In this document: positions 14,031 through 50,113 of the stretch, piece after piece
How positions within the stretch are numbered: the stretch's first letter is position 1
Layout: each line of letters opens with the position of its first letter
Position numbers and translations under genes: made by a program
Assembly: GCA_036874045.1 (NCBI GenBank)
Contig: CM072336.1
Location: 14,193,001 to 14,257,000 of the forward strand
Origin: Cymodocea nodosa
Taxonomy: Eukaryota; Streptophyta; Magnoliopsida; Alismatales; Cymodoceaceae
Direction: 5' to 3'
DNA: 64,000 nt
Notes under the pieces: generated by a model
Databases searched by the model: none
Told to the model about the DNA's origin: nothing
Seen by the model: the letters and a program-made list of their open reading frames with translations, nothing else

Positions 14031-14197
14031 CTTCCCTTGTACCTATGTTTTGCTAGTCCTTTAGCAAACTTACTATGATCTAGTTAAAAATGATCTTCAT
14101 AAAGTGTTAGGACTATTTCTTTCTTTTATAAATTTGCATACTTTTTGAAAATATCTATTCATCTTGGATCCTCAAGATACTAAAGTTAGATTAATAT
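14031..14197 (-). mobile_element. Internal 3' end of Athila-type element B (truncated)
   Basis: The reverse complement of this stretch matches the polypurine tract and preceding internal sequence of element G (about 41060-41268), including the GCTAAGGGACTAGCAAAA-like word. This shows that the LTR to its left is a 3' LTR and that B extended to the right. Only about 167 bp remain before the LTR of element C. No further part of B was found. Confidence 0.75.
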
Positions 14198-28302: not shown

Positions 28303-28309
28303 AGTTTTA

Positions 28310-28327
28310 TGGCGCCGTTGCCGGGGA
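28310..28327 (+). promoter_or_regulatory. Primer-binding site of element G (tRNA-Asp)
   Basis: TGGCGCCGTTGCCGGGGA, a perfect complement of the 3' end of plant tRNA-Asp, seven bases after the LTR end. Confidence 0.95.
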
Positions 28328-28403
28328 ATTAATATAAGCAATTGTTAGAACTGTTTTGTTTTAATAGCTAGAGTGTTGTGTGTTTTCTTCTGTAATTGAG
28401 AAT

Positions 28404-29290: not shown

Positions 29291-30845
29291 ACCCTATCCT
29301 GAAATATTACAACAAACAATACCTGAAAAACAAGAAAAAATTAGAGAAATTTTTGAAAAAGTACAAGTTAACATTCCTTTGTTAGATCTATTGCAGAAAA
29401 TGCCACCTTGTGCTAAATTTCTAAAGGATTGGTGTACTAAGAAAAGAGAGCGAAAAGTTCTTAAAAATGTCTTTTTAGCTAAGCAAAGTAGTTCCTTATT
29501 TCTGCCACAAATTCCTAAAAAGTTATCTGATCTTGGAATCCTTGTTATATCATGCACCATAGGAAATACCATTCTAGAAAGAACCTTAATAGACTTAGGT
29601 GCAGGTATAAATGTTATGCCAAGTGATATATTTGCATCCTTAGGATTAGAAGGCTTAACTCCTACTAGTACGGTTATTCAATTAGCTGATAGAAGTATAA
29701 GATACCCTAGAGGAAAAATAGAGGATGTCTTAATTAAAATCAAAAATTTTATATATCCTATTGATATTGTAATTTTGGATTCCCAACAAATTAAGCATAG
29801 AAATAGTGATACATCTTTAATTTTGGGAAGGCCATTTTTAGCAACATCAGGGGCTGTTATAAATTATAAAACTGGAGAAATGAAGTTAGCATATGGTAAT
29901 GAGGATACTCACTTAAATATTTTCAAACCAGAAAGGTTTGAGGAATTAGAAATGTCCTTACATACCATAGATTTTTTAGAAGATGAAGGAGATATGTTAG
30001 ATGATGTGATTCAAGAAGAATTAAATAAGCAAATCAATTCTGAAACTTTAGAAGAAAGTGAAAGCATAAATATAGAAGGAGATCTGGAAGAAATTAAATT
30101 AGAAAATGATGATGTTCAATTAGGAGCTCTTACTTCTGATGGGCAACATTTAGAATTAAAACTTTTACCTCCTGAATTAACCTATATATTTCTGGAAGAG
30201 AAACGAACTTGTCCAATCATTATTGCTTCAGATTTAAAAGAGGATCAAATAGTTAAATTAAAAGATGTAGTAAAAGGTTATAAAGAAGCCATAGGATGGA
30301 CTATGACTGATATAAAAGGGTTAAGTTCAACTTTATACTATCACCACATTTATTTAGAAGAAAATGCTAAACTTATTAGAATTCTTGAGAGGAGATTAAA
30401 TCCAAATCTTAAAGAAGTAGTCAGGAAGGAAATAGTAAAATGGTTAGATAATGACATAATTTATACGATTTCTAATAGCTCGTGGGTTAGCCCAATCCAT
30501 GTAGTTCCCAAGAAATCAGGATTAACAGTTATTAGGAATGAAAGTCAAGACTTGATACCTACTAGAATTCAATCAGGCTGGAGAGTATGTATAGACTATA
30601 GAAAGCTGAATGCTGTGACTAGGAAAGATCATTTTCCCTTACCTTTTATAGATCGAATGCTAGAAAGATTAGCAGGGCAAGAATCTTTTTGTTTCCTAGA
30701 CGGGTATTCAGGTTATAATCAAATTCTAGTAGCATTAGAGGGTCAAGAGAAAACAACTTTCACCTGTCCTAATGGAACTTATGCTTTTAAGAGAATGCCA
30801 TTCGGATTATGCAATGCACCAACTACCTTTCAAAGGTGTATGTAA
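29291..30845 (+). pseudogene. Element G protease and N-terminal half of reverse transcriptase
   Basis: The frame is open from before 29379 to a TAA at 30843. The protease follows the LLDLLQKMPPCAKFLKDW lead-in and has the DLGAGINVMP active site (residues 72-75 of the 488-residue piece), with SLILGRPFLATSGAVI as the second flap-region motif. DLGA instead of DTGA is normal for Athila-type proteases. An acidic linker follows. RT begins near PPELTY and contains VVRKEIVKWLDNDIIY, SGWRVCIDYRKLN, FPLPFIDRMLERLAG, CFLDGYSGYNQI and MPFGLCNAPTTFQRCM. The TAA directly after that motif stops translation before the catalytic FMDD. Confidence 0.94.
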
Positions 30846-31650
30846 GGCATATTTACTAGAATGACTAAAGATTTTTTAGAAATATTTATGGATGATTTTA
30901 CTGTATATGGCAACTCATATGAAGTTTGTTTAAGCAATTTAGACCTAATATTAAAACGCTGTGTGGAAAAAATCTGGTTTTAAATTGGGAAAAATGTCAC
31001 TTCATGGTTAAACAAAGAATAGTCTTAGGGCATGTTGTTTCTAAGAAAGGGTTTGAAGTAGGTAAAGCTAAAATAGAAGTAATTTCTAATCTACCAGAAC
31101 CTAAATCAGTAAAAGATATTAGATCATTTCTAGGACATGCTGGTTTTTATAGAAGATTTATTAAATACTTTAGCAAAATAGCTAGACCTTTAACTAATCT
31201 ATTAAAAGATGTCCCATTTAACTTTGATAAAAATTGCAAAGAAGCATTTTTCCGACTTAAAACTAGCTTAATTTCAACTCCTATAATTCAAGCACTTGAT
31301 TGGAGTCATCCATTTGAATTAATGTGCGATGCATCTGATTTTGTTGTAGGAGCAGTGTTGAGACAGAAGATAGAAAAATCTCCTAGAGTGATTCATTATG
31401 CAAGCAAAACCTTAAATGATGCTCAAGTTAATTACACAACTACTAAAAAAGAATTATTAGCTATTGTGTTTGCCTTAGGAAAGTTTAGATCATATCTGAT
31501 TGGAGGTAAAGTAATAGTATACACAGATCATGCAACTTTAAAACATCTAATAAAAAAAAAAGAACTAAGCCTAGATTGTTCCGATGGATATTATTATTAC
31601 AAGAATTTGAACTAGAAATTAAAGATAAAAAAGGTTGTGAGAATGTAGTA
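30846..31650 (+). pseudogene. Element G RT catalytic region and RNase H
   Basis: The RT catalytic box FMDD (30885-30896, inside FLEIFMDDFTVYG) is intact. The frame then shifts near 30970. The 229-residue piece 30926-31615 contains VLGHVVSKKGFEVGKAKIEV, GHAGFYRRFIKYFSKIARPL, the RNase H start ELMCDASDFVVGAVL, HYASKTLNDAQVNYTTTKKELLAIVFALGKFRSYL and [15 protein letters not shown] shift in the A-run at about 31555 moves it to the next frame ([22 protein letters not shown]). Confidence 0.93.
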
Positions 31651-33050
31651 GCAGATCATTTATCAAGATTACAAATAGAAAAATCAAATATTGAAATTAA
31701 GGATAATTTTCCTGATGTACAATTAATGATCATCAACACAATGCCTTGGTATGTAGACATAGTTAATTACTTAGTTACTAGTTTAACACCTAAGGATTGA
31801 AATAGACAAGATAAGAAATTGTTTTTCTCAAGAGTAAAATATTACTATTGGGAAGACCCATACTTATTTAAGAAATGTCCTAATCTAGTTTTAAGGAGGT
31901 GTGTTCCAAAAACTGAATATTAGAGCATATTGTCTTTTTGTCATGACCAAGCTTGTGGAGGGCATTTTGGTTTAGGGAAAACTGCTACAAAAATTCTGCA
32001 ATGTGGATTTTATTGGTCAACACTATTCAAAGATGATCATAAATATTCCTTAAGTTGTTTAAGATGTCAACAAATAGGAAGAATATCAAAGAGGAATATG
32101 ATGCCTCTTAATCCTATTGTTGAGGTTGAAATCTTTGATGTGTGGGGAATAGATTTTATGGGTCTATTTCCTATGTCTAATCAATTTAATTACATATTGT
32201 TGGGGGTGGATTATGTATCTTAATGGATAGAAGCTATTCCTACAAAAAATAATGACAAAAAAGTGGTAATACAATTTATAAGAACCAATATATTTGCTAG
32301 ATTTGGAATACCTAAAGCTATTATCAATGATAGAGGAACTCATTTCAGTAATAGAAGTTTTGAAGCCTTAATGAAGAAATATGGAGTAAACCACAAAATT
32401 GCAACATCATATCATCCGCAAACAAGTGGACAAGTAGAAAGTGCTAACAAACAAATTAAGTTAATCTTAAAAAAGTAGTAAATCCTACTAGAACAGATTG
32501 GGCTAATAGATTGATAGATGCACTTTGGGCTTATAGAACTACTTATAAGACAAGCTTAAGTATGTCACCTTTTAGGCTAGTATATGGAAAAAGTTGTCAT
32601 TTATCTGCTGAAATAGAACATAAAGCTTATTGGGCATTAAAAACTCTGAATACTAATTTAAATCAAGCTTCTGAAAATAGAAAGATGCAACTAATTGAAT
32701 TAGAAGAATTTAGAAATGAAGCTTATTCGAAGACTGTAAGAGAAAAAAAGAAAATGAAATTCTAGCATGATAGGAAAATTATTCCAAAAAGCTTTGAAAT
32801 AGGACAAGAAGTATATCTTTATATGGCTAGACTCCATTACCATCCAGGAAAATTAAGATCTAGATGGGCAGGACCTTACATAGTTCGAAATATTTATCCT
32901 TATGGAGCTATTGAAATTGAAAATCCTAAAAATCAGAATATATTTAAAGTAAATGGACAAAGACTTAGACCTATTCTAAAAAATACCAAAAAGCTCCTTT
33001 GGAATTATAGAAGAAGTCAGAGTAGAGTACTACTCAAGCTTTACTTAGTA
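31651..33050 (+). pseudogene. Element G integrase
   Basis: The zinc domain is CHDQACGGHFGLGKTA...CLRCQQIG (31942-32085). The catalytic core has WGIDFMG (first D), IINDRGTHFSN (second D) and GQVESANKQIK (E). The C-terminal module is YGKSCHLSAEIEHKAYWALK, then YHPGKLRSRWAGPYIV...FKVNGQRLRPIL (32823-33000), the motif typical of Athila/Tat. Stops at 31921, 32221 and 32476 and one near 32763 break it into pieces. No chromodomain is seen, as expected for this branch. Confidence 0.93.
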
Positions 33051-33616
33051 AGAAATCACTTTTTTTTTTATGTAGATATAATAAAAAAAATTAATAAAAA
33101 AAAATTATTATTATAAAATATAAAAATCATTGCAGTTCAACTAACCAGATCCATTGGTATGACCGAAACATAAAATATCTGTATTAATTTTTAATAAAAA
33201 AATTTTTGGTTTTACCGAAACATAGTATTGGTTCAACTTGAAAAAAAATTAGGTCTAACTGAAACATAGTATCAGTTAAACTAGTAAAAATATATATATA
33301 TATATTATCTTAAGTATTTTTTTATATCTATTTGTACGGGAAGTCCGTTGAGTTAAGCGTAACTCAACGAGCTTACTCCGTTGAGTTTTGAGTTAGTCAA
33401 CGAGCTTATTCTGTTGAGTTAACTGTAACTCAACGGAGTACTATAGCTAAGATTGCGGATGAGAGAGCGAGATTTGGTTCGAGAAATGACCCGATTACCT
33501 GCCTAAACTTAGGGCTTATTTAAACTAAAACCTAGGGTTTTGGGGGCATTATTCGGCAAATCAGTTAGAATTTAGAGTAGTAGAAATCAGAGCGATTCGT
33601 GCTGCTGTGTAACTCC
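33051..33616 (+). repeat. Spacer after integrase with Ty3-internal palindromes
   Basis: No coding frame is supported. 33150-33280 has three degenerate copies of an ACCGAAACATAGTAT-like word. 33288-33304 is a (TA)n run. 33335-33440 contains perfect dyads, CCGTTGAGTTA...TAACTCAACGA and CTGTTGAGTTA...TAACTCAACGG, the same type as in the LTRs. Confidence 0.7.
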
Positions 33617-35855
33617 ACGATGAGGAAGATGACACCTGAGTTCTGGGAAAATATTGTTGACACATCAGAATTTCTGAAAGAGTTAGAGGAATGGCACATG
33701 TAGTAGAAGATCAGGAATACAACAAGAGAAAAAGAGCTACAGAAGGTAGAATCAAAACTTTTCAACTTCATAAGAGATTTAGTAGATTTGGGTATACAAA
33801 TACCTCAAATAATGGAAACAAGAATAAAGGTTGCAACAAAAATTGCTATAAGCAAAGAAAGAAAATAAGGCCAAACAACGAAGTTGCCCTAGAATTAATC
33901 CAACGTAAGTCTCGACTCTGGTTCAAAAGACGAATCTATAGACGAGCTAAATAGGCGATCTGGGAGCAAGAAAGGAAAGAAAATGAAGAAGAGGCAACTA
34001 AAGGACAAGACGAGCCGACTATTGAAAGACTTGTTCCTGAGGAATAGTAGTCATGACCTCCAGTTCAGCCAATAGAGTCATTGCCACGAGTAGCATTTGC
34101 TTGGCCGAGAACTAATGAAAAAGAGAAAGAGTTTACTAGCTTAGTTAAAACAGCAAGAGACCAAGGTGATGAAGAAAGTATAGCTATAGCTAAGGCACAT
34201 ATTTTATATGATAGCATTAAAAAAAGAGGGCTACAGAAAAGTTGAAAGCCTAATATAAAATCAAAATGGAACAGCATCAAGAAGTTACTGCCAAACCTAC
34301 TGCAAAAGGAGATGAAGCTGGTCCTTCGAGGCCAATAATTATAGAAAAAGTTAAACAGGAAGAGCTAGTACCTGTGGCTCAAAGGCCTATAGAGCCTATT
34401 TTTTTGGATTTAATTTCAGATGAGGAAGAGGAAGACTAGGCACAATTAATCACACGAAGGAAAGGAAAAGAGATAGTGCCTGAATGCCAAAAAGAGATTA
34501 AATCTGAAGCACCAATAGCAACAGGGCCTGTGGTGCCAATTTTTATAAACCTGCTATCCAATTCTAAGGAGGAGCAGGAGTAGCAGCAGCAAGAGCAAAG
34601 AAAAGAAGAAAAACAAGCTGAAATTAGTCTACAACCTGTACAAGAAGAAGAAACAGAAATTAGGGCAGAAACTGAATTGCCCGTGACTCCATCCCAATCT
34701 GCTACAGAATCAGAAAGAATAGTGACAAAGCAAATTGGTAGTTAGGAGGAAGAAGAAAGAATAGAAAATGAAGAAGCTGAACGAAGCTATTTGGACAAAA
34801 ATGACTTTACAGATCCCACTGAAGAGCAAGAAACTCTTCAACAATTTATGGAAAGAATTCAAGACAGAGTGGAGAGTTCTGTCGTCTCACCACCACAGAC
34901 AAAAGTAGAAGCAAAAATTAAGGAATCTGTAGAACATGTTCAAGTGCAGCCTATGTTAGAGGAAGATCAAGAACAAACCCCTCTGGAACAACAAAGTCAA
35001 ATTCCTAACCCGACTGAAACAACAATTTTAAATGAAATACATTTTTGGAGTCAAGAAGCTTATACTAAATACCAAGAAATTAGGGGTTATGATATCATTT
35101 ACAGTAGGCCAGTAAATTGGGACGGAATGCAAGAAATCAAAGAATTATTTGAATTCCAAGGTCTACTGAATTTTATTTCTCAAGAAAGAGGGCATGTAGT
35201 ATATGAAAATTTAGTGCCCTGCTTTTATGCAAACTTAAGAGAAGGAGAAGGAGGATTAATTTCCAACGTGGAGGAAGCTAATGTACAGATAACACCAGAG
35301 CTTCTCCACAACTTTTTTGGATTGAAGAATGAAGGACAGGAAATATTAGAAAGTACAACTGCCGTTGAATGGACAGAACAGGAAATTAAGGACAGTTTGG
35401 CTATCAATCCTGGTGTGCCTCTATTAAATAGATTGAAGCATTTAAATGGTAAAGCACACATAATAGCTAACATTTTGATTAAGAATGTCTATCAACGACA
35501 AGGCCATGACATAGAATTGAGTCAATTTGTCAAATGGGCCACGTTTGCAGTTGTAAAGAGAATTCAAATAAATTGGTCTGCAATTTTTATCTCCAAGCTG
35601 ATAACAGTAAAGAATAAATTGTTTTATGGAGATTTGATTCTACTGCTAATGGTGGATTGTATCGATTTCACTAAATGGGCATCAAAAAGGATCAAATCAA
35701 GAACCATTTCAGTGAAAGAGTACAGAAGTTTTGTAGCTACAGAGATTACTAAACCTTTTGGAGGCATTACAGGAGTTGTAGAGAGGATTAATTAATTAGA
35801 GCAACAATTAGAAAAACTCCAAAAGGAAGTAGATGAACTTAGGAATAAAGACTAA
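33617..35855 (+). pseudogene. Element G accessory ORF (putative plant transposon protein-like domain)
   Basis: A decayed ORF downstream of integrase, in the position where Athila elements carry an env-like gene. It begins around MRKMTPEFWENIVD (33617), has stops and shifts through 34740, then a 334-residue open piece (34791-35795). The N-terminal half is acidic and Gln/Glu-rich. The conserved half reads IYSRPVNWDGMQEIKELFEF, FYANL, ITPELLHNFFGLKNEG, IANIL, IQINWSAIF and KLFYGDLI. This pattern is what plant annotations call a putative plant transposon protein domain. It ends in a short coiled coil (QLEKLQKEVDELRNKD) before TAA at about 35853. I see no signal peptide or membrane segment, so env is not supported. 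A homologous ORF is present in the Ty1 element F at 46348-47249. Confidence 0.75.
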
Positions 35856-36663
35856 ATTGTATTGTTCGTCTACTTGTATATAATTGTATGAAAAATATCT
35901 GAATTGATTGTAATGTAAATTGATTCATATGAATGAATATAAATTTTCAGATATACTTTTCATATGTGTTTTGAATGTGAAATGAATGGAATATATTGAA
36001 TGTTATATAATTTGTGGAACATTATGAATGAATGTTTAATAGATTTACAATTTACTGAATGACAGGATAGATGTTTGAAAATTTCTACATGTTGCAAGGT
36101 AAAATGTAAATTCTGCATAACATAAAATGACCTACAAGTTAAATATTTATATAATGTTCAGATTTAAATGAATTTTGATTAGAATGAAGCATTAATGACA
36201 TAGATTTAACTTTATTTTAGTTAGCATAATGTAGGAAAAATTTATATTTAGAAGTTAATACGAGGAGTAAACTTAAAAGTTGCCAAGTGTTAACTCAACG
36301 AAGTAAGTTCGTTGAGTTAAACTTAACTCCACGAGGTCAGTAATATAATATAAGGTCACTCCGTTGAGTTATCTGTAACTCAACGAAGTTAGTCCGTGGA
36401 GTTAGCAACAGTAACCAACATTATTCCGTTGAGTTATCTGTAGCTCAACGAAGTTAGTTTGTGGATTAAACAGAATGGTAATTCTTTTAACCACGAACGA
36501 AACTTCGTCGGTTTAGCGGTGACCAAAATTTGAAATTAATAGTAGTACACGTACCCATAAAAATAGGAATCAGATGCACGTTGCAAGACACGTTCTTGTA
36601 ACGAGATTTATTCACTTTATGGATGTGCATTATATATATAAAATAGAATGTTATTTACGAGTT
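35856..36663 (+). repeat. Intergenic spacer of element G with palindromes
   Basis: AT-rich and non-coding. 36290-36470 has a run of perfect or near-perfect dyads (ACTCAACGAAGTAAGTTCGTTGAGT; CCGTTGAGTTA TCTG TAACTCAACG; a CGTGGAGTTA variant). Otherwise nothing recognisable. Confidence 0.65.
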
Positions 36664-38143
36664 ACCAGCACTTTTAAAAGAAAGGAGAAAAGCATTGGAG
36701 GAGCTGGAAGGAGAAGCAGCTGATTCGATTTCATCCGTCAACAAATATTTACTGAATGGAAAGCTTCAGACTGGTATGTAATTAATCTTCTGCTATTTAT
36801 TTATGAGCACATAGACTCATTCTCTGAGCACTAATCGATTAATAAGAACACCTACCCAAGGATATTCAACACAGAGGCACACTGAAACATTTTCTAAATT
36901 GGACTTTAACGAAATCCTTTGGGGTGTAGCTAACCTTTCTTTAAAAGAGAACGTAGAGATGGTTGTTCCAGTAGAAAAACCATTAGGAGAAATTCTGTAT
37001 CTGGAATTAGTTGATGAATCTTCATGTATTCGATTGCCAAACTTTGAGGGAGATAGGTTTGAATTGAAATCTAATTATATTAGTCAATTACTACATTTTC
37101 ATGGATTAGAAAGAGAGGATGCCTATTATTTCCTTAGAGAATTTAACGAAGTTTGTCAAATGATGAAAATGTCGAACATGACTATAGATGCTATTAAACT
37201 TAGATATATCCCTTTTGCTTTAAAAGACACAGCTAAGAGATGATTATATACTCTGTCGCCTGATTCAATTTTTGCATGGACTGAATTTTGCTCTGTTTTT
37301 CTGGAAAAATATTATCCAACACATCAAACGATTAAAAAGAAAAAGGAAATATTAATGTGTAGCCAAAAATAGGGTGAATCATTCTAGAAATATTTTGAAA
37401 GATTTAAAGATTTACTGACTCAATGTCCACATCATGCAATGAGTAAAGCACAATTAATAGGTATAATTTATGAAGGCATAGATGTTTCAACGAAATCTTT
37501 ATTAGAATCTACTTGTCAAAATGGATTTTTAAAACTATGTAGTGAAGAAGCATGGGCATATTTAGAAAACTTTGCAAAAAGAACTACATAGTGGGAAAAC
37601 TCGGCTGAAGCTATTGTAGATAAAAGAATATTACCAAGAGGAATGCATAAAATAGATTCAACTACTATGCTTGAGGTGAAATTAACTAAATTAACAAAGA
37701 AAATAGAAGAGTTATCATTAAATCAAAAGCTAACAGAAAAGAATGCAAACATAAATGATCTAGATATTATTTATACTAGAAACTAGAAAGATAACTTTGG
37801 AAATTCTTATAATCCTAATTGGAGAAATCACCCGAATTTGTCTTGGAGAAACAATTTCCAGGGAGGAGAAAATTTAAATGAGAAGAATATAAGTTATGAA
37901 GTATTACTTGAACAAGGATCTAGAATAGAGAAATTAGAAAAGATAATTCAATAATTAAACAATCGTCTAGATTTTGTATTTGGAAATACTGCAAATCAAA
38001 ATATAAATAGAAATATACCCCTTAGACAGAAGGAATCAATGGAAGTTAGACCTACTAGAGCATTGCCAATGCAAGCAGTACCTTACCTTGTCAATAGAAC
38101 TGTTAATGAAATTGATACCTCTTCTGTGAGGATAACTGAATGA
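36664..38143 (+). pseudogene. Element G gag capsid domain, located downstream of pol
   Basis: This is a Retrotrans_gag-type capsid protein in one frame from before 36899 to TGA 38141-38143, broken by stops at 37241, about 37369, 37384, 37588, 37783 and 37951. The order of motifs is that of Athila/Tat gag: FEGDRFELKSNYISQLLHFHG, EDAYYFLREFNEVCQMM, IKLRYIPFALKDTAKR, LYTLSPDSIFAWTEF, FLEKYYPTHQT, YFERFKDLLTQCPHHAM, LIGIIYEGIDVSTKSLLEST, EEAWAYLENFAKRT, and SYNPNWRNHPNLSWRNN. The first stop replaces the Trp of the normal AKRWLY. Upstream, a possible exon (about 36664-36777, LPALLKERRKALEELEGEA) ends at ACTG/GTATGT, and an acceptor-like AATAAG/A lies at 36846, so a small intron of about 70 bp is possible. 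It forms particles in normal elements. Here it follows integrase and the accessory ORF. Confidence 0.85.
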
Positions 38144-38338
38144 AGTAGTATAACTGAAGTAGCTATATATATATATATGTATATATAAGTTTATTTATAG
38201 TTAGTTGTATCATAGAATTAGTCTTTAACTCAACGAACTTAGTCCGTTGAGTTATGCCATAATTCCACGAGGGTGTGCAGTAGTTATGTTAATTTTTGTC
38301 TCTACTAAATTTTTGTATGTGTTATACAGAATCAACAA
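38144..38338 (+). promoter_or_regulatory. Gap between gag and F-box gene with dyad and acceptor-like site
   Basis: Contains an AT microsatellite (38165-38180), a dyad near 38226-38275 (AACTCAACGAACTTAGTCCGTTGAGTT and a CCACGAGG partner) and TTTTTGTATGTGTTATACAG just before the F-box ATG. This last looks like a splice acceptor, so the F-box protein could be made from a spliced RNA. Confidence 0.45.
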
Positions 38339-39477
38339 ATGGAATTGATGCAATTACCATTGGATGCACTAAGGGAAGTACTAAGTAACTTGTCAGCTAA
38401 AGATCTGTGTAGGTTGTGTTGTGTATCAAAGGAAATTAAAGACTGTATTGAAGAAAAATATTTTCAGGGACTACAAGCTGCAAAAATGACTAAGATTAGA
38501 GATGGATTCATATGGAAGTCATTTAATCGTAGTTCAATTAACCATGAATATCTGCCTATGGAAAAACTACTAGAATTCCACCCAATACATTAGAAGGAAT
38601 AGAACATATTATGGGGATAGATGAAGGATTAATCATATACAGAACCAGACCAAGGTATGCAAGTCTATTACCCGATATTTTGATAAGAAATCCTATAACA
38701 AGAGAAGACTGGTATATAGGAAGACCTAATAGATATGAAGTACCAACTGTAAATTGTGGGTTGGCTTTAATATTTTCTGATAAAAATTCGACCATTCCTG
38801 AAAAATTATATTATTGGAGACCTACAGGAAATTGGGGTGAAAATTTATGCTTAAGTGTGTATAATTTTCTGAATAGATCTTGGACTGAAAATACTATGAT
38901 ATATCTAAGACAGAAATCATTAATTAACAGCATGCATGTCATACTTGATGGATATATATATCTAGTCACAAATATATCAGTTGCGTTTAGATCTGATTTA
39001 TACATAGTAAGCATAAATAGTTATGATGATGAATTTGTAGAAATATTACCTATATTGAGTGAAATAGCTAAACCACCATCTGCAGAATTAGATAAAATTC
39101 AAATAGAGATGTGGTATAATAAATATGATGATCCTACTTTATGTCTAATAAGATGGTGGGATGAATTGATGAAATTTCAAATATGGATTATGAAAGACAT
39201 AAATGAATCAAAGTGGGAAGAGGAATATATTGAAATAGATGTAGAAATAGAAACTGCTACATTACCTTGGAACCAAAAAGGATCCATTTCTGCATTTCAT
39301 ATCATTAATGGTAATACACTTGTATTTGGAATTTATAATATATTACATGTTTACAAATTAAGAAGGAACAAGAATTACATTAAAACAGAATTATTAGCAA
39401 GAAGAATTATGCCTAAAAAGTTTGCTTGGACTGACACATTTATTCCATTTGTTTCTACTTATCAATCATGTTCTTAA
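38339..39477 (+). pseudogene. F-box protein gene carried inside element G
   Basis: The first piece (38339-38593, 84 residues) starts MELMQLPLDALREVLSNL and continues SAKDLCRLCCVSKEIKDCIE. This is a clear F-box (residues about 6-39), the motif that binds SKP1 in SCF ubiquitin ligases. The second piece (38611-39477, 288 residues; its frame is open further upstream to about 38570) lies in another frame, consistent with a single small indel around 38575. It has the style of an F-box-associated domain: LLPDILIRNPITREDWYIG, LYYWRPTGNWGENLCLSVYN, SMHVILDGYIYLVT, SAFHIINGNTLVFGIYNILH. Both pieces are otherwise free of stops, in contrast with gag and pol of the same element. The target is unknown. Such a gene is not part of standard Athila/Tat elements, so capture of a host gene is likely. 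Confidence 0.8.
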
Positions 39478-39999
39478 CCTGTGATTTTGTGTGTTTAATG
39501 TTGTGTGTATTCTATAGTTATTTTTAGAGAAAAAAAAAGAGAAATTTTTTTTTAGTTTTAATTTTATTTTATAAAAAAAAAAAAACAAAATATCAATCCA
39601 GTTTGTTGGTATCTATTCTAGGAAACCAACTGGCTTACTTATGAGCCACCAAAGGCATAGGAGCTTGGGTTCCATACAAGACAATGATTTATCAATATCT
39701 ATTAAATGTTATTTTGTTATATATTTTGCTTTTATCTATGAATGAAAAGTTTTTTAGAATCAAAAATCAGAATATGCAGAAGGAAATATAAACGAAACAA
39801 GGTATGTAACTGATTACTTATCCTGAATTTAAATTTAAACTCATTTGTTGAGTTAGGTGCTAAATCAATGAAACTGTATTCATGCAAACTGTATTTATTG
39901 TCAAATCTTTTACATTGAGGACAATGCAAAATGTAAGTATGGGGGGGAGGTAATTAAAGTAATAGCCATGTAAGTTTGTTAATTAAAAGAATTAAAATG
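39478..39999 (+). promoter_or_regulatory. 3' untranslated region of element G with internal purine-rich motif
   Basis: A-rich tracts at about 39528-39590. At 39912-39950 lies ACATTGAGGACAATG followed by GTAAGTATGGGGGGGAGG, a motif pair often found in the 3' region of Athila/Tat elements and resembling the PPT at 41252-41268. It may act as a second plus-strand primer. Confidence 0.65.
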
Positions 40000-41125
40000 G
40001 TACTAAAAAGTTTTGTGAAAATTGAAAATTTTTATGAACTTATTGTAACTATTTGATAATTGAGACTGTAAAATTTTTATAAATAGTAACTACTTGAATG
40101 TTGTATTTAGAAGACTATATAAGATGCTATAGAATTTACTATTTATATCTAGATATAGTATCTTATGTTTTTTCTGAATTTCATGAGTTTAACAATTTCA
40201 CGATTTTAAAATGAAATCAAAATGCTTAATGAAAAAAAAAAAAAATTTATTTAAAGTTCGGAAGGAGCTGAAATGTGAATTCTAGATTAAATGAAACACA
40301 TGATTAAAGATACATTTAATTTAACTGATTAAACTTGTAGAATGATTTATGTGTAGATTTTATTAAACTACATAAAAAGTATGAGCTTATTGTTAGGGAT
40401 TCATATTTACAATAAATGATAGAAGCAGGACTATATGAGATTGGTGTTTTATTGCATCTGTATTAATGAAATACGTATATATACAGTATGGGCTTAATGT
40501 TTTGTTTTGTTTTTGTATTGTGAAAAAAAAAAAAAAAAGATAAAAAGAAAAAAAAAGAAATTTTGAGAGTTTATTGACTTGTTTGATCACGAGACTTTTA
40601 TACTTGAGCAGATAGGTATTTAAGGATAGTTGACTTGAAAAAGGACTCTTGAAATCCGGCAACCTAAGATCCTGATCAAATCTGGGATTGTTGACTGAAA
40701 GCTCGTTACATGGGTACATTAGAAAGCTCCTGTATGATTCAAGTTTGTCAAATTAACTTTTAAAGTACAAAAAAAAAAAAAAATTATACTGTTCTGAAAA
40801 GATATAAGTGTTTTGTAAAATACAGATATCTTATGAATCGAGTATATTTTCTGTTATCTAGAATTGTTGAAATATGAATCTCGAATTAACTTTTGAAGTT
40901 GTTTAATGGAGATACAATTCTTTATTCTATTTGTCTTAATCATATTGAATTGGATTGTACTTTGATTCGTATGTTGTTGAAATTTCTTCTAGAAATCTTA
41001 TTGGAAAATTCAAGATGACAAATGATGAAAAAAAGAACAAACGATAATATAATTAATACCTATGTGATGATGATATACTTTGTATGTAATTTGCATATAT
41101 TTTAAGTATATTTGCAGGTTGATTG
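40000..41125 (+). repeat. Non-coding module shared with Ty1/copia elements E and F
   Basis: Long collinear similarity to 45385-46260 (element F) and to the reverse complement of about 20815-19740 (element E). Shared words include TTTATTGCATCTGTATTAAT, TTTGAGAGTTTATTGA, GTTTGATCACGAG, ATCTGGGATTGTTGA and TTAGAAAGCTC. It lies just upstream of the PPT and 3' LTR in G, and just downstream of the RNase H stop in the copia elements. There is no ORF. Poly(A) runs at 40241, 40525 and 40770 interrupt it in G. Confidence 0.85.
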
Positions 41126-41259
41126 CTAAAACATACAGAATATTTATATACTAGTTCTTATGCTGAATAGAAGAAAAAAAGGGAGAATTAATTCTAGCAC
41201 TTTTAGAATGACCCATTAATGAGATCTTAGTTTGCTAAGGGACTAGCAAAATTTAGGTA

Positions 41260-41268
41260 TGGGGGAAG
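41260..41268 (+). promoter_or_regulatory. Polypurine tract of element G
   Basis: TGGGGGAAG directly before the TG of the 3' LTR, in the conserved context ATTTAGGTATGGGGGAAG. The same sequence, reverse complemented, borders the element B LTR at 14031. Confidence 0.88.
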
Positions 41269-43457
41269 TGTTTAGAATGAAAAAGTACATATTATTAACT
41301 AGTTAAATGATGGTTAATTGCATAATATTTAGCTTATCATATGAGAATTAAGCCATTATATCATAATTGCACTGTTATATGCTTTAATTAAAGAATTTGC
41401 TTAATTTCGGTGAATTAATGTTAATTTAGTACATTTCTGAATTATCAGTAAGTTGCAGGCTGTGAAATCCTTAAGTATCCGAATTTTATGATATTTTGGA
41501 TAGTTATGTTTAACATACCGAACATGTATCGAAGAGTTATGTTTAAATTGTCGAACAGTTATGTTTTAAAAGAATACTTTATTATTTCCTGAAGTACACA
41601 TGTCGAAACCATAATGCATGTCTTAAGTGAACTTTCGGTGAGTTATATATAACTATCCGAAATTGCAGTTGGGCATCGGATAGTTATATGTGTAACTCTC
41701 CGAAATCTCCTTTTATTTATAAAATAGCTGTGGGCACGTGTCATGTTTTGGGAAAGTGACTTAAGTGGATTTTCGGTGAGTTATTTGTAACTATCTAAAA
41801 TGCATCTGAGCATCGGATAGTTAGACCTGTAACTCTCTGAAATGTTTCTTTTATTATTAAACTACTGATGACACGTGTCGAGATCTGGTAGATTTACTTA
41901 AATTATATATAGTTAAGTTTGTAAGTATCCGAAATACACTTGAGCATCGGATAGTTAAATTTATGCATGTGTTTTATAGTTAAATCAACGAGGTAAGTTC
42001 GTTAAGTTATCTGTAACTCCACGAACTATTTATTTTCTAATATGCCACTATAGCGGTTGCAGAAACAGGATAGTTGGAAGGAAAAACCACGATCGCACGT
42101 ATCGCGTAGGGAGAAGAAATCATCGTCGTTGATATGAATGATGGAAATCCAACTAACCATTCAAGCAAAAGCAGTTACCACTGAAGAAATATAAAAGAAA
42201 AGAAGTAAAGAGTGTGTGATCGATGGGTATGGCCAGTGTGTACAAAGGAGGAGCACCGAGCTTTCTGCAGATAGTGTCGGCAATTCTCTGAAGTACCACA
42301 CCAACCATCATCACCACCACATTATCACCACATTATCACCACATTACCACCACATTATCACCACCACCATAATCACCAACCATCGGAGGTCTGTGAGGAT
42401 ACTTTCCTAATGTCGGGTCGATTCCGAGCCAAACACAGTGCTTGATAACCACTGTGAGGAGTGATCGCGTCGCGGGAAGGGAAGCCATTTTCACCAAGCG
42501 CCAACTCATATTTCAGGAGATCGTAAAGCTTTTAGCCTTGGTTTCCAGTTGATGCCTGTATGCTGAAGAGGAGATCATCTTGCAATTCTAGACTCGCGAT
42601 TCTATAGGGAGAGGAGACAGAATTGTAAGTGGTTTAATTTTCAGTGGTGTAATCGCGTCGCATGTAGTGACGGAAGTATTTACTGTCGACTGAGATTACT
42701 TTACATTTCACCTTTCGCCCATTTCCATGTTCATATTAAAACAAAAATACCAATAATAGCTTATCTGTGTTTGTATTTTGTATTTGAGTGTTGTATTGTT
42801 TGTGTTGTATCGTGATTAATGTTATCTTTGTTAGTGTTGTGATTGTTTTATATTTTTTTTAGTTTTACAGTTTACTGAAATTGGTTCGTTCAAAAGACTT
42901 AAAGATTTACTATTTGAATTATCTGAATATTAGTATTGCCTAATGATAAATCCAATATTTACTAACATTAAATAGCTTAATTGATGTTATTTACAATCTA
43001 TGGAACCGCCCAATGGTTGGCCGAATTCCTTTGTAAATAGCAGTATTAAATAGGAAATGCAGGCTCGTGTAGTTAACTTAAGTCCACGAGGTTAGTCCGT
43101 TGAGTTAGCCATAACTCAATGAACTTTGTCTATTGAGTTAACTGTAATTCAACGGAGAGCTTATTGAATATATAAATTTGATTGTTAAAAACGGAACAGT
43201 TCTCAATTCTTAAGCAATTCCCTATGGGATCGACCTGTACTTGCACACTAATACAATAGACACTGTGCACTTGTAGTTAAAGTACAAATTGGAATTAATA
43301 TCTAATTTGTATTAAAGGTTGTTTGTTTTCTTCTAAAAAGGAATAGGCATAAAGATAAATTAACTAAGTAAAAACAGAAGTTAACAAATCCAAGTTTTTC
43401 TGGTGTGTTGTTGGAGATCCAAACAAGTTTTCTAGTATCGTGCTAGCCAAGCGAATA
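41269..43457 (+). repeat. 3' LTR of element G (2189 bp)
   Basis: TGTTTAGAATG...GCCAAGCGAATA; aligned with the 5' LTR it shows CA changed to TA at the end. TATAAAAG is at 42190-42197, a CCACATTAT-type simple repeat at about 42300-42385, and dyads at about 41420-42030 and 43060-43170. Confidence 0.92.
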
Positions 43458-43462
43458 GTTAC
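43458..43462. repeat. Target-site duplication of element G, right copy (GTTAC)
   Basis: This is the partner of 26101-26105, followed directly by the resumed copia integrase frame of element F. Confidence 0.95.
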
Positions 43463-45384
43463 TCTACTAGAAGTAAAGCATATAGAGTATATAAGAAGAC
43501 TTCTAAAACTACTGAAGAAACCCTTCATGTAAGCTTCAATGAAAATTCTTTTAAAGAATCTCAATCTAAAGCTGATAATAATGATATGATCAATTTCCCA
43601 AAAGAGTTAGAGATCAATAGAGAGATTGAAGATTTATCTGAGAAAATCAAAAATATGAACTTAAATGATCAAACTAATGATGAAAGTGATGGACCTTCAG
43701 ATGTTGATGAGAATATTGAGGAAAATCAGAGAAATTGGCGTTATTATTCATCACATCCCATTACTCAAGTCATTGGTAATATTAATGAGGGAGTTAAAAC
43801 TAGAGCTTCAGTAAATTTAAATAGTATGTGTATGTTTGTTTCTATGGTGGAACCAAGGAATATACAAGAAGCATTATCTGATGAAAATTGGATAGTGGCA
43901 ATGCAAGAAGAACTAAATCAATTCATTAGAAATAATGTTTGAGAATTAGTCTTTCCACTAGAAAATCAGTCCATAATAAGTACAAAGTGGATCTTTAGAA
44001 ACAAAACTAACGAAACTGGTCAAGTTATAAGGAACAAAGCTAGACTAGTTGCACAAGGGTATACACAAGAAGAAGGACTAGATTATGATGAAACATTTGC
44101 TCCTATGGCTAGGTTAGAAAGTATTAAAATATTATTGGCCTATGCTTGTTATATGGATTTTAAATTATTTCAAATGGATGTAAAGAGTGCATTTCGAAAT
44201 GGTTTAATTAATGAAGAAGTCTATATAAAACAACGACCTAGATTTGAAGATATTAAAAATTCTGACTTTGTGTATAAATAGAAGAAAACCTTATATGGTT
44301 TGAAGCAAGCACCTAAATCATGGTATGAAAGATTATCTACTTTTTTAATAGAAAAAGGCTATATCATGGGAAAAGTGGATCATACTCTATTTATCAAGAG
44401 AGATGGTAAAGATCAGATTGTTGTTCAAATATACGTGGATGATATAATCTTTGGAGCAACTTCTGATAAGCTGATAAAAATATTCTCTGAAGAGATGACT
44501 AATCAGTTTGAAATGAGTATGATAGGAGAACTTTCATATTTTCAAGGACTTCAAATTAAGCAAATGGATAAAGGTATATTTTTTTAAATCAGGAAAAATA
44601 TGCAGATGAAATGCTTAAGAAATTTAATTTTAATGATACAAGGATTCAAGGAACTCCTATGAGTACTTCTTTAAAGTTAGATATTAATGACATAGGAAAA
44701 TCAATAGATCAAAGAAAATACAGAAGTATGATTGATTCTTTACTTTATTTGACTGCTAGTAGACCTAATATTATGTTTATTGTGTGTGTTTGTGCTAGAT
44801 TTCAATCTAATCTTAAAGAATCACACTCAATTGCAGTTAAAAGAATATTTAGATATATACAAGGAACTAAAAATTTCAGACTGTATTATTCTAAGGATAG
44901 TTCAATAGATCTTATAGAATATACTGATGCTGATTATGCAGGATCTAAATCTGATAGAAAAAGTACCAGTGGCACATGTCAATTATTGGGAAATAATTTG
45001 GTGTCATGGTTTAGTAAAAAGCAAAACTGTGTAGCACTTTCTACTACAGAAGTTGAATATGTTGCTGCTACACTATGTTGCACTCAGATTCTATAGATAA
45101 GTCAAACTTTAGAAGATTTTGGATTATCTTATGATATAACTGAGATTTATTGTGATAGTAATTCTGCAATAAATCTTTCCAAAAATCCTGTATTACATTC
45201 TAGAGCAAAGCATATAAAGGTTAGACATCATTTTCTAAGAGATAACGTAATTAAAGGAAAAATTAAATTAAAATTTGTGTCTAGTAAAAATCAATTAGTT
45301 AATATATTTACAAAACCTCTAGACGAAAATACATTCTACAACATTAGATTAAATTTGGGTATTTGTAGGCTATGTGATGTGTAA
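43463..45384 (+). pseudogene. Element F integrase tail, reverse transcriptase and RNase H
   Basis: It continues 25059-26105. The acidic linker (43586-43942, KIKNMNLNDQTND) leads into RT: GTKWIF-equivalent at about 43975, ARLVAQGYTQEEGLDYDETFAP, QMDVKSAF, GLKQAPKSWYERL, the catalytic QIYVDDIIFG, and FEMSMIGELSYFQGLQI. RNase H has YTDADYAGSKSDRKSTSG, ALSTTEVEYVAA and LHSRAKHI, ending CDV and TAA at 45382. Stops at 43939, 44278, 44585 and 45094 break the frame. It is very similar to the inverted copy at 20818-22735. It encodes the enzyme that copies element RNA. Confidence 0.93.
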
Positions 45385-46347
45385 AATGCTTAAACTTCAC
45401 ATAAAAACATAAATATTATTGATGATGTTGTTCACCTCATAGATATTATATACTTATCATAAATATCTAAAGTAATATCTAAACTGTTGCTTAAGATACT
45501 ATGTATTTATTGTAAAATCATAGTAGTATCTTATTGATTTTAAGTAATTTATCAATTTTAATGGTTTTTACGATTTTAAGTGGAAGTGTAAATGAAAATC
45601 ATTAAATACTTCTGAAATTTTGATTAAGTGTTTTCTTTGAATCAAGGAAAGTGCATATGATCATACATAAATTTGACTTAATTGATTAAACTTGTAGAAT
45701 AATTTATATGTAACTCATCTTAAACTATTAATCAAAAGTATAAGCTTATTGAAACTGATTCATATATTTAGTAAAATTATAGAAGTAAAAATTATATGAG
45801 ATTTGTGTTTTATTGCATCTATATTAATGGAATACATATATACTATGCTTAAAATGAAAAGTGCTTACAAAGTGAAAATCTTTGAGAGTTTATTGATCAG
45901 TTTGATCACGAGCCTTTTGTACTTGAACATATAGGTATGTAAGGATTGTTATCCTAAATAAGGATTCTTTAAATTTAGCAGCCTAAGGTCTTGATCAGAT
46001 CTGGGATTGTTGATTGAAAGCTTATTACACGAATACATTAGAAAGCTCTTGTATGATTCAAACTTTTCAAACTAACTTTTGAAGAAAATTATCAATAATT
46101 ACTGTTTTGAAAAGAAAAAGTTGTTTCATTAATTATAGATATCTTTAAATCAAATATAGTTTCTACCAATATGACTACTAAGTTATTGAATCAACATTAG
46201 TACTTTTGAAAACGTTTACTTGAAATACATTCTTTTATTCTTTTGAAGAAGAGGTTCCTGAAGATGAATTAAACTTTGAATCAAGGCTTCAAGCATCACC
46301 TTCTTTGTGTACAATATTAAAAATTCAAGGTAATTTAATTCATTTTA
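45385..46347 (+). repeat. Non-coding module downstream of element F pol
   Basis: 45385-46260 is the plus-strand copy of the module found at 19740-20815 (inverted) and 40000-41125 (inside the Ty3 element). 46236-46330 may already belong to the accessory ORF (frame EEEVPEDELNFESRLQASPS), but no start is clear. Confidence 0.8.
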
Positions 46348-47739: not shown

Positions 47740-49363
47740 TGTTGAGTATTTTGTTTTGATGATATGTGCTGAATGAAAATAATCATATTTGCTCAATTAC
47801 TATTACTTGTGAAAGGAAATTAAAATCATTAATTAAGACAGAAAAAGCTTACTGATATAAATACTTGTCTGTATTGGATCTGAAATTATACTAGTCGTTT
47901 CATTGCATTAATTTCTCATTTAACTAAATATTAAGTTAACGTATGTTTTTATTGAAAAGCATGATATGTTTTAAAGTTATATTTTCTGTATCATGTACAT
48001 TGCACGTTTGGAAAACTCGTTAAGATTAGTGAGTAAAAGAAGAGACGAACTCGTTAAGTTAGTATTATACACGTGGTAAAATTATAAGTTACGAATGTTA
48101 TATTGTATCACGTGAGATGCACATGTTTAACTTGTTAAGTTAACATAACTAAACGCGTTGAGTTGCTATATTGAACACTAAGGCAACACATTAGGTTTGT
48201 TATTTTTTGCACATGGTAAAATTCTTATTATAAAAACATTTGTATATTACTGGTTCGTTAAGTTATCGTAACACAACGGAGATAGTTCATTGGGTTATCC
48301 ATAACACAACGGAGTTAGTTCATTGAGTTAGCTATAGTACTTGTCACGTGAATTGTCACATGAGAAACTCATTAAGTTGAAAAAGCTAAGTTATATATAT
48401 ACTTGTGTTACTCGTTTAGTTAACATTAAAGTAACTACTTCTTATTATACTTGATGAAAAATTTTAGACGAGAAAGTCTATTTTGCAGGAAATTTTTCAA
48501 AGATCTAGGATTGATGATTAAAGAAAATTTGAAATGTAAACGTGAGTCAGAACGTGTATATTTCGATGAAGGAAAAAGAACAGACGTGAAGAAGTGGAAA
48601 ACTGGTAGTGATTAAACGTGGAGGATATGCATGAAATGAAGATACAATATAAAAGGCATAAAATTCTCGTTGATCAAATTATCCCTACACATCAAACGAA
48701 AAATCCTTTTTAGGGATCAAACTATCCCTACACATCAAACGAAAAATCTTTTTTGGGATCAACTATCCCTACACATCAAACGAAAAATCTTTTTCAGGGA
48801 TCAAACTATCCCTGCACACCAAAAGAAAAATCTTTTCATGGATCAAAAACACCTCTTCGGGGAAAATCTCTCAAGTGGAATAAAGTCCAGTGAAGAATAA
48901 AAAGGTAAGATATATGTCATTGAAGATATGAAGTATCAGGTGGAAGAAAGTTCAGTGAAGAATAAAAAGGTAAGATTTACGTCACTGAAGATTTAAAGTA
49001 TCAGAAGAAAGTAAATTTGGTGAAGCAAAGAAAGACTAGATATTCGTCACTAAAGAATTGCTGAAGAAGAAAAAGAAAAAGAAGAAAAAAGATCTCAAAC
49101 AGGGAGAAATGTTTTAAATTCCGTAAATTAGTTTTTTCTATTTGTAGTTATGAAATTGTTTAGATGATACATGGTATCGAGATATAATTGCATCTACAAT
49201 TTCTGAGGAGAATTGAATTGTATATTGTAATTGAAACCTTGAATAAAAATGATTTTATGAAAACAATGACTCAACTTGTTTTTAATTATTGAAGTTTCAA
49301 TTATAAACGAAAATATTGAAAAACACAATTCACCCCCCTCTTGTGTAGCCATATGATCCTACA
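47740..49363 (+). repeat. 3' LTR of element F (1624 bp)
   Basis: TGTTGAGTATTTTG...GATCCTACA with TG/CA ends, preceded by the PPT. It aligns with the truncated copy at 18229-19583. TATAAAAG at 48648-48655 is a likely TATA box. Dyads of the CGTTAAGTTA and CGTTGGGTTA type lie at about 47990-48420. It landed in the gag of element H, since 49364 onward is minus-strand copia gag. Confidence 0.87.
48665..48845 (+). repeat. 45-bp tandem repeat, about four copies, in the element F LTR
   Basis: The unit contains GATCAAACTATCCCTACACA then TCAAACGAAAAATCTTTTT and an AGG end. Starts are near 48672, 48717, 48760 and 48804. Across unit borders AGGGATCAAACTATCCCT forms a 6-bp stem with a 6-base loop. The truncated LTR at 18229-19583 has only about two units (19045-19130). 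Confidence 0.85.
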
Positions 49364-50113
49364 ATTTCTTCAACAGATTTTTAAATTTTCTGGTCAACAA
49401 AAGTAAATCGTCAGAATCACTAGTGACTTCTAAGACTTTATCAGCCTCAAAAGTCAGATCTCTTCTAGGATTTTCCCTTTTAGATCTAAATGTTATACTT
49501 CATAGGCTATCAAATTGCCTATGAGATCATCGAGAGTATATGTATTTAAATATTTAGACTCTTCAATAGATATTGTCTTTTAAGCCCAAATTTTAGTTAA
49601 AGATCTAAGGATCTTTCTTACCAAGTCTTTTTCCTCAAATTTCTTGCCTAAAGATTTTAATGAATTTACAATCTCAAGAAAATAGGAAAACATATTAGAG
49701 ATACATTCATTTTCATGCATTCTAAAAAGCTCATATTTATGTACTAACATATTAATCTTAGATTCCTGGACTTGGTTAATACCTTCATTGGTAACTTGTA
49801 ATGCATGTCATATCTCATATGTAGTTTAATATGCAGAAACTTTATTAAATTGATCATGAGATAAAGCACAAAACAAGATGTTTAAACCTTTAGCATTCAG
49901 TGTCATTCACTCCTTTTCATCAAAAGTCCAAGTATCATATAGAGTTGTAACTAACACTATAGAATTGCTAATTACATGCCATAATTTGAAATCAATTGAC
50001 TGAAAGAATACTTTCATCTTATATTTCCAGTAGTTGTAATTGCTACCTTCAAACATAGGAGAATGAGTAGTGGTCTGTCCTTCAATCATAACTAAAATCT
50101 CAATATTATCCAT
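49364..50113 (-). pseudogene. Sirevirus-like gag N-terminal part (element H)
   Basis: The start ATG is at 50113 (ORF 49907-50113, MDNIEILVMIEGQTTTHSPM, then FEGSNYNYWKYKMKVFF, the usual copia gag opening). Downstream, interrupted pieces include LNTYTLDDLIGNLIAYE (about 49495-49550), the UBN2 signature shared with element A. It is cut at 49364 by the LTR of F. Protease and pol of H are not seen on the other side of F. Confidence 0.82.

What the first reader, a model, noticed from the sequence alone, without database searches (positions are those of the whole stretch)
40000..41125. A ~1.1-kb non-coding module shared by Ty3/gypsy and Ty1/copia elements
Collinear similarity links the region upstream of the 3' LTR of G (Ty3) with the region downstream of RNase H in elements F (45385-46260) and E (20815-19740, inverted). 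The two superfamilies diverged long before plants, and their pols here are unrelated, so vertical inheritance cannot explain this. The module may help packaging, plus-strand priming or RNA export, or reflect template switching in shared particles.
Basis: seen in the sequence. Interest (0 to 1): 0.88.

Follow-up and report, generated by a model that had tools for sequence, protein, structure and literature searches.

The report
Retroelement tail shared across superfamilies
Two unrelated kinds of plant jumping gene in one genome, each abundant, carry the same roughly 1-kb non-coding stretch near their 3' ends, which points to an ancient swap of genetic material between lineages thought to have evolved apart.

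Summary
Window 40090-41122, in Ty3/Athila-like element G, is 72-74% identical to the non-coding stretch after RNase H in Ty1/Sirevirus-like copies E (20742-19754) and F (45462-46242). It is not an accident of this locus. In the window's genome a 27-base core matches 6,889 times (reversed control 0). Of F-type Ty1 RNase-H ends taken without regard to the module, 53 of 53 carry it. Of 20 Ty3 3' ends, 18 carry it; the two without were included on purpose as motif variants and share another linker. Of 20 core hits, 14 are Ty1, 5 Ty3, 1 unclear. Module copies form two clades (within 0.05-0.11, between 0.34-0.39), so the exchange is older than the G insertion. Similarity falls to near chance at a Sirevirus PPT octamer (AGGGGGAG). 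No codon signal, unusual fold or Rfam match was found, but 150 bp are far closer between superfamilies than the rest. Best reading: ancient transfer of a 3' linker between superfamilies, most likely by reverse-transcriptase template switching, later fixed in both families. Route, direction and function are not shown.

The parts
40090..41122 (+). Shared non-coding module in the Ty3 element G
   Evidence: 20 of 20 fetched genome copies of this type have the Ty3 LTR downstream
40597..40747 (+). Part of the module closest between superfamilies (difference 0.11-0.12 in three 50-column bins; the other 16 bins 0.21-0.43)
19754..20742 (-). Module in Ty1/Sirevirus-like copy E, starting about 75 bp after the RNase H stop
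   Evidence: 20 of 20 sampled E-type copies have Ty1 pol upstream
19749..19756 (-). Sirevirus PPT octamer site at the module's 3' edge (AGGGGGAT in E; exact AGGGGGAG in 16 of 20 sampled relatives)
45462..46242 (+). Module in Ty1/Sirevirus-like copy F, 3' part lost by deletion
   Evidence: comparison with L030
46356..47027 (+). Env-like ORF remnant of F (two open stretches), homologous at 35% and 40% aa to the G ORF at 34746-35795
47740..49366 (+). 3' LTR of F, preceded by a Sirevirus-type PPT/LTR junction (match of 47713-47748 to the D junction 4285-4251)
26106..43457 (+). Ty3/Athila-like element G, nested in Ty1 copy F, 5-bp direct repeats GTTAC on both sides
   Evidence: flanks read directly; LTR pair K2P 0.055
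26106..28302 (+). 5' LTR of G, followed by a PBS-like site at 28310
41269..43457 (+). 3' LTR of G
39942..39950 (+). Extra polypurine tract of G, about 140 bp upstream of the module
   Evidence: an extra PPT in the linkers of Athila4 and Calypso is stated in PMC2829016 (passage)
41138..41268 (+). Ty3-specific pre-LTR linker and terminal PPT (GGGGGAAG)
34746..35795 (+). Env-like ORF of G (PF20167 match at 27.1 bits, below its cut-off of 45); codon-position constraint among copies
14018..14195 (-). 3' linker end of Ty3 copy H, probably of the type that lacks the module (its further linker is cut off by Sirevirus-like LTR S)
43458..45385 (+). Ty1 RT/RNase H part of F, ending just before the module
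   Evidence: E-F K2P 0.069

Best explanation
The module is a piece of retroelement 3' linker that passed at least once, long ago, between a Ty1/Sirevirus-like lineage and a Ty3/Athila-like lineage in this plant's ancestry and became a fixed part of both families. SHOWN: homology, fixed place in both backbones, two separate clades, absence from Sirevirus D and from two copies of a related Ty3 subfamily in the same genome, and a drop to near-chance similarity at a Sirevirus PPT octamer. INFERRED: the route, most likely reverse-transcriptase template switching between the two RNAs in one particle, with minus-strand synthesis leaving one template at the G-run of the PPT and returning upstream. INFERRED: about 150 bp are kept by selection as a cis-acting signal of the genomic RNA useful to either family. 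Not known: direction of transfer, number of transfers, and what the core does.
For: Identity far above chance. 20 of 20 fetched G-type copies have the Ty3 LTR downstream; 20 of 20 sampled E-type copies have Ty1 pol upstream; both samples chosen by module similarity. Not chosen by the module: 53 of 53 listed exact F-type RNase-H ends on C1 up to 10.9 Mb (36 by coordinates; 17 by sequence) and 18 of 20 Ty3 3' ends. 14 Ty1, 5 Ty3, 1 unclear among 20 core hits. Two clades, split support 1.0; distances within 0.05-0.11, between 0.34-0.37. No module in the linker of Sirevirus D or in Ty3 copies L106 and L110, which share another linker. The Ty1 edge has AGGGGGAG in 16 of 20; 21 of 21 Ty3 copies lack it there. 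Core closeness; no codon periodicity. Ty3 and Ty1 LTRs here also share U3 patches.
Against: Nothing seen contradicts the transfer itself. Against template switching: only one edge is well marked, and nested insertion plus deletion could also make it; 7 of 35 pairs beyond that edge score z 2 or more, so the edge may be less sharp than it looks. Against a selected core: diversity within the Ty3 copies is higher in the centre (0.074 against 0.055), though lower within four Ty1 copies (0.072 against 0.119), and window by window the between-superfamily difference does not follow within-group diversity (Spearman -0.21, 0.38, and 0.23 for the sum; p 0.39, 0.11, 0.35); a second, later exchange of the core would look the same. 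No unusual fold, no Rfam match.
Confidence: 0.6

Rival explanations
1. DNA-level origin: a Sirevirus inserted into the 3' linker of a Ty3 element (or the reverse), later deletions left only the inner linker piece, and the chimera then multiplied.
For: Nesting of these families in each other is seen here: G sits in F, and L013 and L015 show Ty3 LTRs abutting F-type Ty1 pol. In window copy H a Sirevirus-like 3' LTR (S) ends in a Ty3 3' linker.
Against: Needs two deletions that remove both LTRs and pol. Between the extra PPT region and the Ty3 LTR, 19 of 20 fetched loci show no match to Ty1 LTR, pol or env; in L018 Ty1 pol in reverse orientation abuts the cut module start.
Confidence: 0.27
2. Both families captured the same host non-coding sequence independently.
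For: G-family copies carry captured host-like sequence (F-box ORF 38309-39477; F-box E 3e-11), so capture occurs.
Against: Same orientation and nearly the same segment in both; 19 of 20 sampled core hits lie in one of the two backbones and the 20th is a truncated piece beside LTR-like sequence. A single host copy could still hide among 6,889 matches.
Confidence: 0.07
3. The module is a third mobile element that inserted into both families.
For: High copy number (6,889 core matches).
Against: Fixed place in each family; no inverted repeat pairs its two ends; 0 of 20 core hits clearly elsewhere, 1 unclear.
Confidence: 0.02
4. Ancient common inheritance of a linker kept by selection since before the superfamilies split.
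For: About 150 bp are strongly alike.
Against: Even the left flank aligns at 57-70%, while Ty1 pol of D and E differs more (K2P 0.46) and the D linker has no module; Ty3 copies L106 and L110 have another linker.
Confidence: 0.02

Closest known systems
Template-switching complex LTR elements of Triticeae (Sabot and Schulman 2007, PMC1950507; passages seen)
   Same: Chimeric plant retroelements explained by reverse-transcriptase template switching between co-packaged RNAs
   Different: In the passages seen the example complexes are Angela-like (Copia) with three LTRs; here the exchanged piece is an internal non-coding linker, between superfamilies, and fixed in two families
Sirevirus linker domain with multiple PPT octamers (Bousios et al. 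2010, PMC2829016; passages seen)
   Same: Ty1 copies here show the octamer AGGGGGAG between pol and 3' LTR, an env-like ORF and a long linker
   Different: No linker shared with Ty3 elements in the passages seen; the terminal PPT of F reads AGGAGGAG
Athila/Calypso Ty3 elements with env-like ORF and an extra linker PPT (PMC1142308 and PMC2829016; passages seen)
   Same: G has an env-like ORF, an extra PPT and a PBS of the type I recall for that lineage (recall, not a call)
   Different: G carries the Ty1-shared linker, a displaced gag-like piece and an F-box ORF between env-like ORF and 3' LTR
ORFs shared among highly diverse bdelloid rotifer retroelements (PMC5408684; passages seen)
   Same: Sequence shared between retroelement types; template switches proposed by the authors
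   Different: Coding ORFs, not non-coding DNA; animals
Ancient recombination among Ty1 lineages inferred from domain trees (PMC6317226; passages seen)
   Same: Chimeric origin of plant LTR elements
   Different: Within Ty1/copia and in coding domains

Membership tests
Sirevirus (Ty1/copia), for E/F and relatives | Ty1-type pol with gag pre-integrase, integrase and RVT_2 | tested here: met
   PF22936, PF13976, PF00665 (27.2 bits, below its cut-off of 32.6), PF25597, PF07727 on E ORFs
Sirevirus (Ty1/copia), for E/F and relatives | PPT octamer AGGGGGAG in the linker, terminal one next to the 3' LTR | tested here: inconclusive
   Exact octamer at the module's end in 16 of 20 copies and in L030; the terminal site of F reads AGGAGGAG, aligned to the D junction
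Sirevirus (Ty1/copia), for E/F and relatives | Optional env-like ORF between RNase H and 3' LTR | tested here: met
   L030 open frames 2983-4902 between module and LTR; F 46356-47027
Sirevirus (Ty1/copia), for E/F and relatives | Inverted repeat around the PPT/3' LTR junction; placement in RT trees | not tested
   No tree or junction analysis was run
Athila (Ty3/gypsy), for G | Ty3-type pol with RT, RNase H and integrase zinc domain | tested here: met
   PF00078, PF17919, PF17917, PF17921
Athila (Ty3/gypsy), for G | Env-like ORF and extra PPT in the linker | tested here: met
   ORF 34746-35795 and PPT at 39942; env-like by position and homology to the F ORF, function untested
Athila (Ty3/gypsy), for G | Athila clade in an RT tree, no additional RNase H | not tested
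   No tree was run; the label Athila-like rests on anatomy and recall
Template-switch recombinant | Chimera without LTR remnant at the junction that transposes as a unit | tested here: inconclusive
   21 of 21 Ty3 copies share the same kind of right junction and G has an LTR pair with matching flanking repeats, but a nested insertion with deletions could give the same
Template-switch recombinant | Direct evidence of co-packaging | not testable with these tools
   Needs experiment

The most novel reading that the evidence does not exclude
The core is a cis-acting signal that lets RNA of one superfamily use particles made by the other: the Ty3 family, whose gag-like piece in the copies seen is displaced and shows no codon constraint, may be packaged in trans by the abundant env-bearing Sirevirus-like family (or the reverse). 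This would explain why a linker segment, and also LTR patches, were exchanged and kept.
Probability: 0.13. Interest if true: 0.92.

Novelty: new variant of a known kind. Interest (0 to 1): 0.72.

Why it matters
The two LTR-retrotransposon superfamilies are normally treated as separately evolving. A fixed non-coding segment in abundant families of both means their RNAs or DNAs met and recombined, and that this part of the element could be replaced by a foreign one and still spread. A core alike in both makes an open question testable: which cis signals do plant retroelement particles recognise, and do superfamilies share particles?

Tried and rejected
Chance or AT-richness: rejected. One-off nested insert in the window's G: rejected. 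Copia LTR fragment: rejected, the module lies outside the LTR of both families. Third transposon: no inverted repeat pairing its ends, no clear third context in 20, one unclear. Coding remnant: substitutions flat over codon positions, 6 of 22 gaps a multiple of 3; among copies no codon signal, smallest of three frames p 0.05. Structured RNA: z about -1; Rfam none in 39400-41400. Low diversity of the module within the Ty3 family as a sign of selection: not used, because those loci were chosen by module similarity. Relatives outside this genome: none by three pattern scans and two protein scans of viral contigs (23, 24) and one pattern scan of genome contigs, collections where plant DNA is not expected. 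Protein search with the env-like ORF: none at 1e-3 among 1,020 candidates; with an E ORF: best 120 of 4,144 listed, 37-52% identity, where an organism is named mostly plants; host not identified. Print: searches showed no report of a non-coding segment shared by Ty1 and Ty3 elements; I saw listings, starts of abstracts and passages only, and the library holds open-licence papers only. Wright and Voytas 2002 was not held. The BLAST part returned nothing, probably because of unsupported gap settings, and looked for files under wrong names; neither is used. Sirevirus-like copy S is not used as evidence of absence, because only the last 290 bp of its linker are visible.

Full report
WHAT WAS CLAIMED. 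I tested the similarity, its limits, its setting in the genome, and its age.

THE SIMILARITY IS REAL. Self-BLAST gives 72.7% identity over 843 columns between G 40294-41118 and E 20544-19754, and 72.7% over 560 columns between G and F. Scores are 62 and 54 SD above dinucleotide shuffles. Weaker similarity extends left to about 40090 (z 7.0); beyond that z is 0.3 on the left, and 0.2 to the right of about 41120. With gaps left out, 983 sites give 73.6% identity and K2P 0.33 between G and E; G-F has 72.3% on 768 sites.

ANATOMY. G (26106-43457) has two 2.2-kb LTRs (K2P 0.055), a PBS-like site at 28310, 5-bp direct repeats GTTAC on both sides (read), and lies inside Ty1 copy F. F is a Sirevirus-like element. 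After RNase H (stop at 45385) come the module, an env-like ORF remnant (46356-47027), PPT-like tracts and a 3' LTR at 47740, whose junction matches that of Sirevirus D. Genome copy L030 shows the fuller order: RNase H, module 1188-2194, env-like open frames 2983-4902, linker, LTR from 5409. F in the window lacks about 1.7 kb between module and env. In G the order differs: pol, env-like ORF (34746-35795), a gag-like piece (36815-37243; my reading of the translation, no Pfam match), an F-box ORF (38309-39477, in two frames), an extra PPT (39942), the module, a 130-bp linker, the LTR. The env-like ORFs of G and F are homologous at only 35% and 40% amino-acid identity, so the non-coding module is much closer between superfamilies than this gene.

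FIXED IN BOTH FAMILIES. The window's genome (374.6 Mb, unnamed) could be searched. Of the 40 matches listed for the G module I fetched 20 besides the window's own. 20 of 20 have the Ty3 LTR downstream; 19 show the extra PPT region, 18 the F-box ORF, 15 the gag-like piece and 15 the env-like ORF, whole or in part, within the fetched stretch. Of the 41 rows for the E module I read the upstream ends of 20: 20 of 20 have Ty1 pol upstream, 19 of them up to the RNase H stop; L040 has a pol deletion and L037 an LTR insertion. These two samples were chosen by module similarity.

SAMPLES NOT CHOSEN BY THE MODULE. Two Ty1 copies reached only because Ty3 copies lay next to their pol or gag both carry it (L029, L030). 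A pattern for the RNase-H end of the F-type Ty1 family has 2,903 matches with up to 3 mismatches (control 0). On C1 up to 10.9 Mb, 53 exact ones are listed; 36 have an exact module core 500-1000 bp downstream by coordinates (shifted-coordinate control 0.285 links on average for both families together), and all 17 others show the module by sequence, one with an internal deletion and one cut by a Ty3 LTR: 53 of 53. This tests the F-type family only. A pattern for the Ty3 linker/LTR junction has 3,526 matches with up to 2 mismatches (control 0). By coordinates alone 14 of 32 exact ones have an exact core upstream. Of 20 that I picked from the first 100 and read, 18 carry the module. The two without, L106 and L110, I had included on purpose because their motif differs; they are the only two such variants among the 100 listed. 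They share another linker with each other (72% over 452 columns). Their last 59 to 85 bases also match window copy H (85-90%), whose further linker is cut off by another element, so H is probably of that kind. Sirevirus D, with its linker complete, also lacks the module.

HOW MANY, AND WHERE ELSE. A 27-base core pattern, up to 2 mismatches, has 6,889 matches; reversed control 0. Of 20 exact hits picked along the list, 14 are Ty1 type, 5 Ty3 type, 1 is truncated and unclear (L082); none is clearly elsewhere. The sample covers only exact hits on part of C1.

AGE AND CLADES. On 8 module copies K2P between the Ty1 and Ty3 groups is 0.34-0.37, within groups 0.05-0.11. For the 3' 400 bp of 17 position-picked copies plus G and E: between 0.387, within Ty3 0.090, within Ty1 0.052, split support 1.0. 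The G LTR pair differs by 0.055, so the transfer is far older than this insertion. It is nevertheless younger than the split of D and E, if pol at 0.458 can be compared; between E and F the module has changed more than pol (0.103 against 0.066-0.069), which strengthens that.

THE EDGES. In Ty1 copies the right edge reads TTTGTAGGGGGAG or close to it: exact AGGGGGAG in 16 of 20. In 21 of 21 Ty3 copies it reads like TTTGCAGGTTG. Beyond it, similarity is at or near chance: z 0.1 to 2.3, and -0.6 to 2.9 in 35 pairs, 7 of them at 2 or more. AGGGGGAG is the Sirevirus PPT octamer (PMC2829016, passages). An edge at a G-run PPT fits reverse-transcriptase pausing and strand transfer, but this is inference from general knowledge. 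The left edge is diffuse.

CONSTRAINT. Identity along the module is clustered (p 0.0005). Among 21 Ty3 and 4 Ty1 copies in 19 bins of 50 columns, between-superfamily difference is 0.11-0.12 at 40597-40747, 0.36-0.43 in the four left-most bins and 0.21-0.41 elsewhere; net of within-group diversity 0.04-0.05 against 0.12-0.35. Within-group diversity does not tell the same story throughout: in the centre (40300-40760) it is higher for Ty3 (0.074 against 0.055) and lower for Ty1 (0.072 against 0.119), and neither follows the between-group difference significantly. So either selection acted during the active life of both lineages, or the core was exchanged again later. No codon signal, no unusual fold, no Rfam match.

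OTHER SHARED PIECES. Ty3 and Ty1 LTRs in this window share patches: the LTR of Ty3 copy C and the F LTR share 146 columns at 77.4% (E 2e-29), and 11-base boxes TCGGATAGTTA/TAACTATCCGA occur 4 and 4 times in two Ty3 LTRs (G, A) and 6 and 2 times in two Ty1 LTRs (D, S), none in 50 shuffles each; they are absent from the C and F LTRs. So exchange, or convergence of repeats, is not limited to the linker.

MECHANISM. I hold transfer between elements as close to certain, template switching as the likelier route, and a cis role of the core as possible but untested. Because the module lies before env in Ty1 and after it in Ty3, a role tied to env translation would not fit both; packaging, export or stability of the genomic RNA would. 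In the window's G, and in a partial Ty3 copy in the flank of L018, the 5' UTR runs straight into the pol ORF. The displaced gag-like piece shows no codon constraint (p 0.59), while the env-like ORF does (p 0.0015). If this holds for the family, it would need Gag from elsewhere, which would put its RNA into foreign particles; the missing gag rests on two copies.

KNOWN AND NEW. Template-switch complexes, chimeric Ty1 lineages and ORFs shared between retroelement types are known (PMC1950507, PMC6317226, PMC5408684; passages). My searches showed no non-coding linker shared by Ty1 and Ty3 families. I file it as a new variant of a known kind.

Noticed in passing
window 38309-39477; [quoted passage not shown] codon positions vary equally (p 0.38 and 0.48), so it looks like a captured host gene carried as a passenger.
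   Followed up: partly
window 36815-37243, 28302-29217: A gag-like N-terminal piece sits after the env-like ORF in 15 of 20 fetched Ty3 copies, while the 5' UTR of G (and of a partial copy in the flank of L018) runs directly into the pol ORF; the family may lack a working gag.
   Followed up: partly
window 16122-16258 and 48047-48192: A Ty3 LTR (C) and a Ty1 LTR (F) share 146 columns at 77% (E 2e-29), a second patch shared across superfamilies.
   Followed up: partly
window 2466-4258, 14196-15490, 41269-43457, 9775-11965: Ty1 LTRs D and S and Ty3 LTRs G and A share repeated boxes TCGGATAGTTA/TAACTATCCGA and TAACTCNCCGA, absent from their shuffles; perhaps related to the CGG-CCG repeated motifs described for Sirevirus LTRs (PMC2829016 passages).
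   Followed up: partly
L106, L110; probably window 14018-14195: A Ty3 subfamily with the same LTR start but another linker of at least 400 bp in place of the module.
   Followed up: partly
window 14196: The 3' LTR of Sirevirus-like copy S ends in the Ty3 copy H linker, by a loose alignment within about 20 bp of the place where the module ends in G; possibly coincidence.
   Followed up: no
window 18230-19586: An F-type Ty1 LTR, truncated at its start, stands in + orientation against the 3' side of E, which runs on the - strand; the local rearrangement is not resolved.
   Followed up: no
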